Shown here: piece by piece, positions 19,446-24,786 of the stretch
How the letters are laid out: each line of letters begins with the position of its first letter
Position numbering within the stretch: position 1 is the stretch's first letter
From: Bacteroidota bacterium
Lineage (GTDB): Bacteria; Bacteroidota; Bacteroidia; Chitinophagales; Chitinophagaceae
Length of the DNA: 64,000 nucleotides
Assembly: GCA_026391455.1 (NCBI GenBank)
Contig: JAPLEH010000052.1
Location: 1-64,000 of the forward strand
Direction: 5' to 3'
Notes under the pieces: generated by a model
Seen by the model: only the letters and a program-made list of their open reading frames with translations
The model's database searches: none
What the model was told of the DNA's origin: nothing
Made by a program: the position numbers and the translations under genes

Positions 19446-20636
19446 ATGAGCCGGTTTTATTCATATCTGCATTCCGCGGTCACCATGCTGGAAGAATACA
19501 CGGGGGCGGAGCCATTTGCTACCTTCAGCAAAAAGTATTTTGCCCGGTTCAAAAAATTCGGCTCGCGGGACCGGAAACTTATCAGCCATTTATGTTATTG
19601 CTATTTCCGAACGGGTAAGTCACTTCGGGCTTTATCTGTTGAAGACCGGCTGACAACTGGGTTGTTTTTTTGCAGCGACGCTCCCAACGAGATGCTGGAA
19701 ACATATCGGCCCGAATGGAACCGGGAAACCCATCTTTCACTGGAAGAGAAATTTCATCTGTGTGGATTGGATGCCAAGGCAGATGCCGTATTCCCGTGGC
19801 CGGATGAACTGAGCGAAGGAATGGATAAGGAATTATTTACTGCCTCATTTTTTCAACAACCGTCTTTGTTTATCCGTATCCGGCCCGGGAAAAAAGATAA
19901 AGTGATGGCGCAATTAAAACAAGCAGCTATTTCGTTTGACCTGATACGGGAAAACGCCATAGCCCTGAAGCCAGGGACGAATATAGATGGCCTGCTGGCA
20001 GTGAATACCGATGTAGTGATACAGGATCTGAGTTCGCAACGGGTGGGTGAATTGATGACACTCGCAGAAAAACAGGATACCACGCCTTTTACGGTATGGG
20101 ATTGCTGTGCCGCCAGCGGGGGGAAATCTTTGCTGGCATATGACCTGTTGCGAAGTGCTGAACTAACGGTCTCGGATATCCGGGAATCCGTTTTAATGAA
20201 TCTGAAAAAACGTTTCGCAGAGGCCGGTATACGGAAATACCAGTTGTTTGCTACAGACCTTTCATCCGGCGATACCTTTCGTCCGCCGCCCGCTTTACAG
20301 GGTAAGCACCCGTTTGACCTGGTACTAGCCGATGTACCCTGCTCCGGCAGTGGTACCTGGAGCCGTACACCGGAACAATTATTTTATTTTGAGAAGGAAC
20401 GAATCAATGCCTATGCAGCCCTGCAACAAAAGATCCTAAGCCGGGTTGTGCCCTTTGTAAAGCCAGGGGGATACTTATTATATAGCACTTGTTCTGTTTT
20501 TCACGGAGAGAATGAGCGCATCCTATCATTCCTGAAAGCACAATTCCATCTCCGGGTAGTGAAGATGGAATTGCTGAAAGGATATTCAGAAAAAGCGGAT
20601 ACGATGTTTGCCGCTTTATTACAACGGTCAGAATAG
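19446..20636 (+). CDS. RsmB/NOP2-family RNA cytosine-C5 methyltransferase
   Basis: 396 residues. The C-terminal half is a SAM-dependent RNA m5C methyltransferase: SAM loop CCAASGGKS (about 218-226), the motif IV catalytic region ADVPCSGSGTW and the motif VI STCSV, giving the two Cys typical of the RsmB/NOP2 group. The N-terminal 130 residues resemble the NusB-like/RNA-binding part only loosely. RsmB methylates 16S rRNA; whether this member shares that site is not shown by sequence. Its last nine bases overlap the stop end of the convergent subtilase gene. Confidence 0.9.
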   Translation: MSRFYSYLHSAVTMLEEYTGAEPFATFSKKYFARFKKFGSRDRKLISHLCYCYFRTGKSLRALSVEDRLTTGLFFCSDAPNEMLETYRPEWNRETHLSLEEKFHLCGLDAKADAVFPWPDELSEGMDKELFTASFFQQPSLFIRIRPGKKDKVMAQLKQAAISFDLIRENAIALKPGTNIDGLLAVNTDVVIQDLSSQRVGELMTLAEKQDTTPFTVWDCCAASGGKSLLAYDLLRSAELTVSDIRESVLMNLKKRFAEAGIRKYQLFATDLSSGDTFRPPPALQGKHPFDLVLADVPCSGSGTWSRTPEQLFYFEKERINAYAALQQKILSRVVPFVKPGGYLLYSTCSVFHGENERILSFLKAQFHLRVVKMELLKGYSEKADTMFAALLQRSE

Positions 20637-22619
20637 CTTCATCATTTTTGCAGTGCCGATCAGTTGATTGCCATTGGTTACTTTTACAAAATACTCCCCC
20701 TTCTCCAGCCGGTCTACTGCCAGATTAATCGTTTTGCTGCCTGCTGTTTTACTCTCTCTGATCTGCATCACCAGCCGTCCTTTGGTATCGAACACAGCAA
20801 TGCCTAAGTTCGTAACGGCATAGGGTGTTTCCACCAGCAATTGCGCCGGTGAACTTTGCAGGCGGTTGGATTTGATCACCACCAGTACTTTTTCGGATAC
20901 GGGTGTGGTGCAGGGGGTGGTAAAGTTTACTGCTACGGTATCAATATAAGCTTCGGTCAGGGTGGCTGTTGCGGTATCAATCAATTGCCGGATGCGATAG
21001 GAATAGCTTCCGGTAATGGTACCCGAAATGGTAGTATTGAATTGGTAGGTGCGGTTGGTGAGCAGGGTGGCCGCTGCCGGTGTTACTACTCCGATCTTAG
21101 TATAAACAGTTTCACCGGGTGCTTTGCGTTCGATCTCGTATTTCATGGCTCCCATATCCTTGCTTCTCCAATCGATGGTAACATTGCAGTTGCTGATTGT
21201 TGCCGTGGAAGTGGCATACTCGATCAGCAGGTTTTTAAAAGCTGTTTTCATATTGGGTATGCCGTATCCAATACGATCATTGGGTGTGCCGGTAATACTA
21301 CCAGCTTGTTGCATGGCTTTTACGATCTTCATATTATTGAATTCCGGAAAGCCCTGCCAGAGGCAGGTTCCCAATCCTGCCATATTCGGGCAGGCGAACG
21401 AAGTTCCATTTGCGAAGCCTACCGTATTGCCGGTAGTTTGTACCAATGCCGATACGCCTACGGAAGCCATATCGGGTTTGATCTGTCCATCGGAAGAAGG
21501 GCCATAACTGGAAAAACCACCTACCACTCCGGTTGCAGTTACTGCTCCCACACATACCGCGCTGTCAGCATCGGAAGGGGTGGTGAGATAATGCCAGGCG
21601 CTACCGCCTTCGTTGCCCGCAGATACAAAAACGAGCAACCCTTTTTTAGCTGCCATATCCGCACCTCTGGAAGAGATTGTGGTATTGCCATTCATATTCG
21701 CATAGGTGTAATTTAAAGACGCATTATCGAAATCATAATATCCCAGTGAAGAACTGATGATATCACTGCCGGCGCTGTCCGCCCTTTCTGCCGCACATAC
21801 CCAGTTGTGTTCTTCAATCGGATATTCGCTTGCATCATCTTCCGTTCTGAAAAGCCAGAAAGAGGCTTTTGGTGCTTTACCGATAAACTGACCGGGTATA
21901 TTGGCGGCAATGGTAGACAGACAGTTCATACCATGACTACCATCGTTGGCTACGTTGGATTCGCGTGCCACAAAATCCCAGGTACCTAAAATTTGTCCAT
22001 TGGCAATAGCACTGTCGAATGCCTTTAAGCCGGTATAATTGAAATAGCCGTTGTCGAGCATGGCCAGTTGCATACCTTGTCCGCGGAGGCCGATATTGTG
22101 CAGGAACTCTCCGTTATGCAGATGGATCTCATTGAAAGCGTTTGTTCCATAATTAAAAAAATCAGCTTCTGTGCGGCTGGTGGAAACCGGTGCATCGGTG
22201 ATCGTTTCTTCACCAGCGAATTTATTGCGCAAACCACGGCCATTGTCTGCCATGCGGGATGCAATACCGGATACAGCTTGTACAAAGGGTAATGCATTGA
22301 TGGCTGTGATCGCAGCGGCATCGGTGGTAAAAATCGTTACGGAATTGAGCCATTTCGACGTATTGAGAATGGTTACATTCGGAATATTATCGATCTGGTT
22401 CACAAAGGAAGGTGTAACCGGTATATCAGCGCTGTCGATGGAAATACCATATTTCGTGCGCCGGTCAATAGCCCGTGCAGAGAGATAGGTCTGGGGAGAA
22501 GACAAAGAGAACGGGCTGTTTCCTTTATGTTTTAATGTTACGATATAACGGTTGAACTGAGCATCGATATTTTGTAAAAACACAAAAGAAATGCCCAGTA
22601 GGAGTAAATTTTTTTTCAT
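20628..22619 (-). CDS. subtilisin-like (S8) serine protease with type IX sorting domain
   Basis: 663 residues. A signal peptide (1-20), a pro-region to about residue 170, and a subtilase catalytic domain with D189 (AMLDNGY), H229 (DGSHGM), oxyanion Asn N336 (SAGNEGG) and S407 (NGTSFACPNMAG). After a beta-rich linker the last 85 residues form a type A C-terminal sorting domain (GIAVFDTKGRLVMQI ... LEKGEYFVKVTNG ... AKMMKLF), which directs export across the outer membrane by the type IX system. It is therefore a cell-surface or secreted protease. It overlaps the methyltransferase gene tail-to-tail by nine bases. Confidence 0.93.
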   Translation of the reverse strand: MKKNLLLLGISFVFLQNIDAQFNRYIVTLKHKGNSPFSLSSPQTYLSARAIDRRTKYGISIDSADIPVTPSFVNQIDNIPNVTILNTSKWLNSVTIFTTDAAAITAINALPFVQAVSGIASRMADNGRGLRNKFAGEETITDAPVSTSRTEADFFNYGTNAFNEIHLHNGEFLHNIGLRGQGMQLAMLDNGYFNYTGLKAFDSAIANGQILGTWDFVARESNVANDGSHGMNCLSTIAANIPGQFIGKAPKASFWLFRTEDDASEYPIEEHNWVCAAERADSAGSDIISSSLGYYDFDNASLNYTYANMNGNTTISSRGADMAAKKGLLVFVSAGNEGGSAWHYLTTPSDADSAVCVGAVTATGVVGGFSSYGPSSDGQIKPDMASVGVSALVQTTGNTVGFANGTSFACPNMAGLGTCLWQGFPEFNNMKIVKAMQQAGSITGTPNDRIGYGIPNMKTAFKNLLIEYATSTATISNCNVTIDWRSKDMGAMKYEIERKAPGETVYTKIGVVTPAAATLLTNRTYQFNTTISGTITGSYSYRIRQLIDTATATLTEAYIDTVAVNFTTPCTTPVSEKVLVVIKSNRLQSSPAQLLVETPYAVTNLGIAVFDTKGRLVMQIRESKTAGSKTINLAVDRLEKGEYFVKVTNGNQLIGTAKMMKLF

Positions 22620-23622: not shown

Positions 23623-24786
23623 TTAAGGGAGTTTGCCCCACTGAATGATGCCACCCCCGATCACATCATCGCCTTCATAAAATACCGCGCTCTGCCCGGG
23701 GGCAATGCCTTTGGCATTTTCATAAAATCGTACAGACAAGGCATGCCTTGTCTCAACAGACAGGGCATGCCCCGTTGATCGTAGAGACAGGGCATGCCCT
23801 GTCTCTACGATCGGAAATAAATTCGACAACGTGCCTTTATCCTTATACCGGATTTTGGTAACGGCCTCCATACCGGGGGTAATGGCATCGTATTTCACCA
23901 GATTGATCTTCCCCACGGTCATTTCGTTTTGTTCCAGGTCTTCTTCATCACCCAGCGTTACGGTATTGTTATCCGGGTCAATACGGGTCACGAATACGGG
24001 TTTGCCAAAGGTGATATCAAGCCCTTTTCGTTGCCCGATGGTATAGAAGGGGTAGCCTTTATGGGTACCCAGGATTTTTCCGTTTTTATCGATAAAATTT
24101 CCCCCCGCCACTTTTTCCTCCAGTCCTTCTACTTTTCGCTTCAGGAAACCGCGGTAGTCATTATCCGGTACAAAACAGATCTCGTAGCTCTCATTTTTTT
24201 TGGCGAGTTCGGGGTAACCAAAATCATGGGCCATTTGCCGGATTTCTGTTTTGCGATAAGGGCCGAGCGGTAATAAGGTTCTGCTAAGCAGGTCCTGCTG
24301 CAATCCCCAGAGTACATAGCTCTGGTCTTTGGTGTCGTCAATGGCTTTGCTTACCACAAAACGTCCGTTATCATGTTGACGGATCTTTGCATAATGGCCG
24401 GTGGCGATGAATTCACAACCCAATGCATCAGCTCTTTTCAATAAAGCCCTCCATTTGATATGGGTATTACACAGCACACAGGGATTGGGTGTGCGGCCGG
24501 CGAGGTATTCATCTACAAAGTTCTCAATTACAAAATCGCCAAACTCTTCGCGTATATCGAGAATATAATGGGCAAAGCCATGTTCAACAGCAGCCTGCCG
24601 TGCATCATTGAAAGAATCCACATTGCAGCAGCCAGTTTCTTTTTTACTGCCCCCGCTGGCGGCATAATCCCATGTTTTCATGGTAATGCCCACCACTTCG
24701 TAGCCCTCTGCATTGAGCATCAGGGCGGTAACGGTACTATCTATACCGCCGCTCATGGCCACCAGCACTTTTCCTTTTTTACTCAT
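23623..24786 (-). CDS. mnmA: tRNA-specific 2-thiouridylase MnmA, with an in-frame repeat insertion
   Basis: 387 residues. It makes 2-thiouridine at the wobble base of certain tRNAs, using ATP and a relayed persulfide sulphur. Visible: PP-loop SGGIDS (12-17), catalytic Cys in NPCVLCN (C106) and in YEICFV (C204), the GQRKG segment, and the C-terminal barrel ending in GIAPGQSAVFYEGDDVIGGG. Between LFPI and VRFYENAKG (residues about 327-352) there is an insertion of roughly 25 residues with three copies of a (G/R)HALS peptide, encoded by palindromic repeats at 23734-23812. The frame stays open and both active-site regions are intact, so the enzyme is probably functional. It has its own promoter box and terminator. 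Confidence 0.96.
   Translation of the reverse strand: MSKKGKVLVAMSGGIDSTVTALMLNAEGYEVVGITMKTWDYAASGGSKKETGCCNVDSFNDARQAAVEHGFAHYILDIREEFGDFVIENFVDEYLAGRTPNPCVLCNTHIKWRALLKRADALGCEFIATGHYAKIRQHDNGRFVVSKAIDDTKDQSYVLWGLQQDLLSRTLLPLGPYRKTEIRQMAHDFGYPELAKKNESYEICFVPDNDYRGFLKRKVEGLEEKVAGGNFIDKNGKILGTHKGYPFYTIGQRKGLDITFGKPVFVTRIDPDNNTVTLGDEEDLEQNEMTVGKINLVKYDAITPGMEAVTKIRYKDKGTLSNLFPIVETGHALSLRSTGHALSVETRHALSVRFYENAKGIAPGQSAVFYEGDDVIGGGIIQWGKLP
23734..23812. repeat. three palindromic repeat units inside mnmA
   Basis: Three units with a GCATGC centre at 23741-23746, 23765-23770 and 23792-23797. Unit 3 is a perfect 36-base palindrome (23777-23812, half-site GATCGTAGAGACAGGGCA). Unit 1 is a perfect 20-base palindrome (23734-23753, AGACAAGGCA half). 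Unit 2 is an imperfect one joining dissimilar halves. Centre-to-centre spacings are 24 and 27 bases, both multiples of three, so the reading frame is kept. On the mnmA strand each centre is read Gly/Arg-His-Ala-Leu-Ser. Confidence 0.93.

What the first reader, a model, noticed from the sequence alone, without database searches (positions are those of the whole stretch)
23734..23812. Protein-coding palindromes inserted in frame inside mnmA
About 79 bases made of three palindromic units with GCATGC centres lie within the C-terminal barrel region of mnmA. Spacings of 24 and 27 bases keep the frame, and the units encode (G/R)HALS-type peptides between conserved LFPI and VRFYENAKG segments. This looks like a mobile palindromic element that tolerates being part of a protein, as known for rickettsial palindromic elements (established elsewhere; extension to this lineage is inference). 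MnmA is essential or near-essential in many bacteria, so a functional enzyme with such an insert is notable.
Basis: partly seen in the sequence, partly recalled or inferred. Interest (0 to 1): 0.82.

Follow-up and report, generated by a model that had tools for sequence, protein, structure and literature searches.

The report
Mobile DNA palindromes inside mnmA gene
Three copies of a short mobile DNA palindrome sit inside the gene for a tRNA-modifying enzyme and are read as an extra protein loop, a clear new case of a known kind of element.

Summary
Confirmed. mnmA (23623-24786, minus, 387 codons, no stop, only match in the genome) contains three GGCATGCC-centred palindromes that encode 26 residues. 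Of 30 MnmA proteins inspected, 28 have no palindrome at this loop; only the window's and its closest relative's (G010, two units) do. The best unit is a perfect 28-bp palindrome GTAGAGAC-N12-GTCTCTAC; an identical copy lies in a REP-associated tyrosine transposase (RAYT) gene on another contig. In 42 genomes of the genus, the 3 with the palindrome all have that RAYT, and 37 have neither. The motif is in 74 of 392 genomes of the phylum and, nearly unchanged, in many phyla. Of 114 such stretches, 10 carry a unit in frame in RAYT-like ORFs and 9 in frame inside unrelated conserved proteins. These are 'double-foot' GTAG REPs of the RAYT system. REPs inside genes and inside RAYTs are published (PMC3733652, PMC6006769). 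New: the host gene, empty/two/three-unit forms of one loop, and unexplained palindromic flanks. Enzyme activity is untested.

The parts
23623..24786 (-). mnmA, tRNA 2-thiouridine(34) synthase, 387 codons, with the insert in its C-terminal beta-barrel domain
   Evidence: Pfam C-terminal domain matches only positions 39-77 of 77 here, but 3-77 in the empty relative L016
23734..23811 (-). whole insert, 26 codons IVETGHALSLRSTGHALSVETRHALS, in place of a 6-residue turn (ENGTMK type) in relatives
23781..23808 (.). unit A: perfect 28-bp double-foot REP GTAGAGAC-AGGGCATGCCCT-GTCTCTAC, extended to a 36-bp palindrome (23777-23812) by GATC on both sides; same 28 bases as the copy in the RAYT gene on contig C63
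23758..23777 (.). unit B: degenerate REP, one arm decayed
   Evidence: 3 mismatches to the 20-mer
23730..23757 (.). unit C: REP with core AAGGCATGCCTT and two arm mismatches; reaches 4 bases beyond the insert into the V and R codons

Best explanation
The insert is a cluster of three double-foot GTAG REPs, non-autonomous palindromes that go with a REP-associated tyrosine transposase (RAYT, TnpA-REP). Shown: the units, the identity of unit A with a copy in a RAYT gene of the same genome, the empty loop in relatives, co-occurrence with a RAYT in the genus, and an open gene under strong purifying selection. Inferred: a RAYT cut and rejoined the single-stranded hairpin form of the REP; a dimer with 24-nt spacing landed at a hairpin turn of the MnmA barrel before the window species and G010 separated, and unit A was added later in the window lineage. 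The insert survived because two of the three frames of the palindrome have no stop, the net length is a multiple of three, and the turn tolerates extra residues. The added loop is probably neutral for the enzyme.
For: Unit A is identical over 28 bases to the copy in the C63 RAYT. Palindrome in 3 of 42 genus genomes, RAYT in 5 of 42 including those 3, Fisher p 0.0009. RAYTs of G009 and G010 carry units in frame, and the RAYT ORFs of G031 and G061 hold variant palindromes. 28 of 30 MnmA proteins lack it; G010 has two units at the same 24-nt spacing with the shared variant end GTCTGTACG. dN/dS 0.018-0.033 in the 7 of 9 comparisons where it could be computed. 9 of 114 stretches with a near-identical unit have it in frame inside other conserved proteins. 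Published precedents: PMC6006769 section 13, PMC3733652 section 15.
Against: Copy number is low for a REP: 4 places with exact arms in 5.5 Mb, 8 with up to 2 mismatches against 1 for the reversed control. In G009 the one match equals the one reversed-control match, though it is a perfect palindrome inside a RAYT. The two halves of the own RAYT lie in different frames around a 29-base masked stretch, so an active transposase in this genome is not shown. Its HUH motif reads NHTH, not NH[IFV]H as tabulated for subclass 2.4. Movement of REPs by RAYTs is not demonstrated in the literature seen (PMC8266576 passages).
Confidence: 0.85

Rival explanations
1. The palindromes arose in place by replication slippage and strand switching, without a transposase.
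For: Repeat units adjoin each other; flanks of some copies continue the palindrome: 16 of 163 distinct copies by 4 nt or more, about 1.5 expected.
Against: Unit A has the same 28 bases as a copy on another contig, and the same sequence recurs across phyla; in-place origin cannot give that.
Confidence: 0.08
2. The stem-loops were selected as an RNA control element of mnmA, for mRNA stability or translation rate.
For: The insert mRNA folds at -60.1 kcal/mol, z -9.8; G010 at -43.3, z -5.4.
Against: Any such palindrome folds well; the loop is empty in 28 of 30 relatives; the stretch matches no Rfam family; sequences of the same kind lie in unrelated genes.
Confidence: 0.06
3. It is a rickettsial-type palindromic element (RPE) in a new lineage.
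For: In-frame insertion in functional-looking genes.
Against: Ends are GTAG/CTAC, not CGTC; associated with a RAYT (PMC3733652 passages).
Confidence: 0.02
4. The insert inactivates MnmA and the gene is a recent pseudogene.
For: The C-terminal domain match is broken by the insert, and mean identity of that domain outside the loop is slightly lower than in seven other genes compared (82.9% against 84.5-86.2%).
Against: Open frame and single match in the genome; conserved residues on both sides and the GGGIIQ end intact; low dN/dS; G010 keeps the gene with an insert in the same place.
Confidence: 0.03

Closest known systems
Double-foot REPs of TnpA-REP (RAYT) subclass 2.4 (PMC6006769)
   Same: Palindrome with GTAG at the 5' end and CTAC at the 3' end; units in frame inside RAYT genes between HUH and Tyr motifs; found in Bacteroidetes and various phyla.
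   Different: Here also in frame in mnmA; the own RAYT's HUH motif reads NHTH, and its frame is uncertain; copy number is low.
Intragenic GTAG REPs (PMC3733652, e.g. in uvrA, recB and tRNA pseudouridine synthase genes)
   Same: GTAG-tagged REPs, often dimers or groups, encoding 20-30 residues inside conserved genes; REPs at about the same site in recB of two Xanthomonas species.
   Different: mnmA and trmU do not occur in the main text of that paper (supplement not readable); here empty, two-unit and three-unit alleles are compared across one genus.
Rickettsial palindromic elements (RPE)
   Same: Palindromes tolerated in frame within ORFs.
   Different: CGTC tag and no known dedicated transposase (PMC3733652).

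Membership tests
GTAG-tagged REP | Palindrome of 20-40 bp with GTAG at one end | tested here: met
   28-bp palindrome, GTAG on both strands
GTAG-tagged REP | Repeated in the genome (usually over 100 copies, PMC2817692 abstract in listing; usual, not a requirement) | tested here: inconclusive
   Repeated, but only 4 exact-arm places, 8 with up to 2 mismatches, control 1
[quoted passage not shown]
   GTAG...CTAC (definition in PMC6006769 section 13)
Double-foot REP of subclass 2.4 | Associated RAYT with NH[IFV]H, WQ, YIxNNP | tested here: inconclusive
   Own RAYT reads NHTH, GWQ, YILNNP; G009 reads NHLH, WQ, YIINNP; G010 reads DHVH, WQ, YIRDNP. No tree was built.
Double-foot REP of subclass 2.4 | REPs in frame inside RAYT genes between HUH and Tyr motifs | tested here: met
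   G009 L044 and G010 L048; 10 of 114 stretches have a unit in frame in a RAYT-like ORF. In the own RAYT it cannot be settled because of the masked stretch.
Double-foot REP of subclass 2.4 | Recognition and cutting by the RAYT | not testable with these tools
   Needs purified protein
Rickettsial palindromic element | CGTC at one end | tested here: not met
   Ends are GTAG and CTAC; RPE tag from PMC3733652 passages
Rickettsial palindromic element | In-frame insertion in coding sequence without loss of the ORF | tested here: met
   it works like one in this respect

The most novel reading that the evidence does not exclude
The hairpin turn of the MnmA barrel is a recurrent landing site where REP units are added and rewritten while the gene stays under selection, so that a mobile palindrome keeps remodelling a loop of a housekeeping enzyme; and the symmetrical core changes and palindromic flanks of other copies reflect a strand-switching step in the spread of double-foot REPs that has not been described.
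Probability: 0.15. Interest if true: 0.68.

Novelty: new member of a known kind. Interest (0 to 1): 0.45.

Why it matters
It ties a protein-coding palindrome in a bacterium outside Rickettsia to a RAYT-REP system and gives a comparison within one genus: empty, two-unit and three-unit forms of the same enzyme loop. The near-identical unit in frame inside two histidine kinases, HisH, KdtA, an RNA ligase, a sulfatase-modifying-factor protein and three secretion-tail proteins suggests that double-foot REPs supply peptide loops more widely than single reports show.

Tried and rejected
Rfam (gathering) gave only two rRNA matches in the window; no tRNA in the window. Pfam Y1_Tnp found 4 other transposases in the own genome; a half-site scan of those four loci showed no full GTAGAGAC palindrome, and the C63 RAYT was not among that model's matches.

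Paper searches: 5 papers, all listed; 16, all listed; 88 hold at least two of three terms, 10 listed, none about this; 48, 15 listed. In these listings I saw no report of REPs in mnmA; absence beyond them is not claimed.

Covering ORFs dropped from the in-protein count: L077, L125, L136 and L162 (unit outside or at the edge of the conserved domain); L167 (no Pfam match); L156 and the remaining ORFs (such as L084 + strand, L092, L094, L101, L105, L108, L113, L114, L115) were not scanned, judged spurious or undecided by eye. Host-matched cores, a first idea, hold only in part: the first G010 unit has the GAGG core common in G010, but its second has AGGG, which is not among the 11 exact-arm G010 copies. 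The empty site upstream of guaB is too loosely aligned to say which flank was copied.

Full report
WHAT IS THERE. The ORF 23623-24786 (minus, 387 codons) is mnmA. In coding sense LFP is followed by ATC GTA GAG ACA GGG CAT GCC CTG TCT CTA CGA TCA ACG GGG CAT GCC CTG TCT GTT GAG ACA AGG CAT GCC TTG TCT and then GTA CGA TTT TAT GAA AAT. The three GGCATGCC centres are 24 and 27 nt apart. Unit A is a perfect 28-bp palindrome, extended to 36 bp by GATC on both sides; unit C has two arm mismatches; unit B is degenerate. The 20-mer core was found 3 times with up to 3 mismatches, and in none of 100 shuffles.

EMPTY AND FILLED SITES. MnmA was found in 56 of 58 genomes searched. The DNA of 30 (the window's own and 29 others) was fetched and aligned. 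The spacer between the LYP-equivalent and F(Y)E is 8 residues in 25 of 30, 9 in two, 11 in one (G022, no palindrome), 20 in G010 and 28 in the window. G010 reads VETRHASSLETGHALSV: two units 24 nt apart, the spacing of B and C here, and both inserts end in the variant GTCTGTACG. I infer an ancestral dimer and a later unit A in the window lineage; two independent hits of the same loop are not excluded. A further unit starts at 1176 on the G010 contig, whose mnmA ends at 1156. The loops of the other 26 genomes with a match were not inspected.

THE GENE IS KEPT. Window against G010 mnmA: proportion of synonymous differences 0.656, of non-synonymous ones 0.040. dN/dS was 0.018-0.033 in the seven of nine comparisons where it could be computed; in the other two synonymous sites were saturated. 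The C-terminal domain outside the loop averages 82.9% identity to 12 relatives, against 84.5-86.2% for seven other genes treated alike with 11 or 12 relatives; the deficit is small and was not tested.

THE ELEMENT IN THE GENOME. GTAGAGAC-N6..20-GTCTCTAC occurs at 4 places in 5.5 Mb: mnmA, next to guaB (C26), and twice at a RAYT gene (C63), one inside the coding stretch and one before its start. With up to 2 mismatches there are 8 places, unit C among them, against 1 for the reversed control.

THE ELEMENT IN THE GENUS. Of 42 genomes 3 have the palindrome: G000 (4), G010 (11), G009 (1, with 1 reversed-control match). A RAYT related to the G009 one is found in 5 of 42, including those 3; Fisher p 0.0009. 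In the other two, G031 and G061, the RAYT locus holds a variant palindrome (TAGAGACGCAAAATTTTGCGTCTCTA; GTAGGGACAACGCATGCGTTGTCCCTAC) whose peptide is seen in the RAYT ORF. The G009 RAYT carries one unit in frame and that of G010 three. In G010, 33 places match with up to 2 mismatches, reversed control 0; besides mnmA and the RAYT, one lies in frame in a 318-residue ORF on C49 that matches no NCBIfam or Pfam family. Arms are constant while the 12-nt core changes symmetrically: GAGG, GCAA, GCCA and GGGA types among the 11 exact-arm copies of G010, AAGG and AGGG in G000.

THE ELEMENT BEYOND. GTAGAGAC-N12-GTCTCTAC is in 74 of 392 genomes of the phylum; in that listing I saw the reversed control in one genome, G307. 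A pattern with 26 fixed bases gave 114 stretches before the scan stopped at its limit; by record title they come from Bacteroidota, Chloroflexi, Gamma-, Beta- and Deltaproteobacteria, Gemmatimonadetes, Ignavibacteria, Spirochaetaceae, Aquificaceae, Neomarinimicrobiota, Phycisphaerae and others. In the 114, 10 have a unit in frame in a RAYT-like ORF: L058, L061, L072, L073, L084 (a variant unit; the exact one lies just outside), L098, L099 (partial ORF), L118, L152, L160. Models see these genes weakly: NCBIfam's REP transposase model matched 5 of 5 RAYT ORFs given (L044, L048, L058, L098, L118) at 44-69 bits, below its cut-off of 80; Pfam Y1_Tnp matched 4 of 10, two over its cut-off of 23 bits, and neither of 2. 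In 9 of 114 the unit lies in frame inside an unrelated conserved protein. For eight of these it lies inside the matched Pfam stretch: HATPase of two histidine kinases (L067, L140), HisH-type GATase (L127), three secretion-system sorting tails (L107, L122, L133), T4-type RNA ligase (L155), FGE-sulfatase domain (L168). The ninth is KdtA (L093), where NCBIfam alignments span the unit at 119-185 bits, below their cut-offs. Eight of the nine read VETRHA(L/V)SL and one reads RDKACLVST. Only ORFs of 110 residues or more were considered, so these are lower bounds; the other 95 stretches are between genes or undecided.

HOW IT PROBABLY WORKS. Two of the three frames of the palindrome are open and the third starts with TAG, on either strand, so in-frame survival is not rare once the length fits. 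Published work describes RAYTs as HUH enzymes that process single-stranded REPs and proposes, without proof of the mechanism, that they spread them (PMC8266576, two passages). Insertion at a hairpin turn and loss of all damaging outcomes by selection suffices for mnmA. The mRNA of the insert folds strongly (-60.1 kcal/mol, z -9.8), as any such palindrome would.

KNOWN OR NEW. Double-foot REPs and their in-frame presence in RAYTs are described in PMC6006769 (section 13 read; passages); REPs in many other genes, tRNA pseudouridine synthases among them, in PMC3733652 (abstract, section 15 and passages). mnmA, trmU and Chitinophaga do not occur in the latter's main text. So this is a new member of a known kind. 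Added are the empty/two/three-unit series, the link to a RAYT in the same genomes, and the palindromic flanks. No call names the window's organism; a Bacteroidota is inferred from the secretion-system sorting tail of the neighbouring protease (20628-22619).

The in-protein and RAYT counts were extended from the 80 stretches listed to all 114, the G010 core exception was added, and the odds of the novel reading were lowered from 0.17 to 0.15 because of that exception.

Noticed in passing
L193:2108-2135, L194:2130-2157, L163:3839, L219:1501: Flanks of some REP copies continue the palindrome: 16 of 163 distinct copies by 4 nt or more (about 1.5 expected from shuffled flanks), 9 by 7 or more (under 0.1 expected; one, L068, is a nested unit). 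In the 116 copies from genome contigs alone it is 8 and 5. Inverted flank copying or insertion into existing palindromes; unexplained.
   Followed up: partly
L193 (G000 C63): The only RAYT of this type found in the own genome has its two halves in different frames around a 29-base masked stretch within a CGTCCACGTC-type repeat.
   Followed up: no
L172:1176-1203 (G010 C208): A further REP lies directly after the G010 mnmA gene, beside the two units inside it.
   Followed up: no
L177:1472-1921 (G010 C603): Cluster of five REP units, three of them identical at 42-nt spacing, amid a short-period repeat.
   Followed up: no
L173, L188, L189, L043, L051, L052 (G010): REPs beside arrays of another short repeat that reads EASATMF-like peptides.
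   Followed up: no
L107, L122, L133: Three of the nine in-protein copies hit the secretion-system C-terminal sorting tail, perhaps because it tolerates VETRHA(L/V)SL as a strand.
   Followed up: no
L067, L140: Two histidine kinases of different records both carry the unit inside the HATPase domain, soon after the Asn-rich N box (motif name recalled).
   Followed up: no
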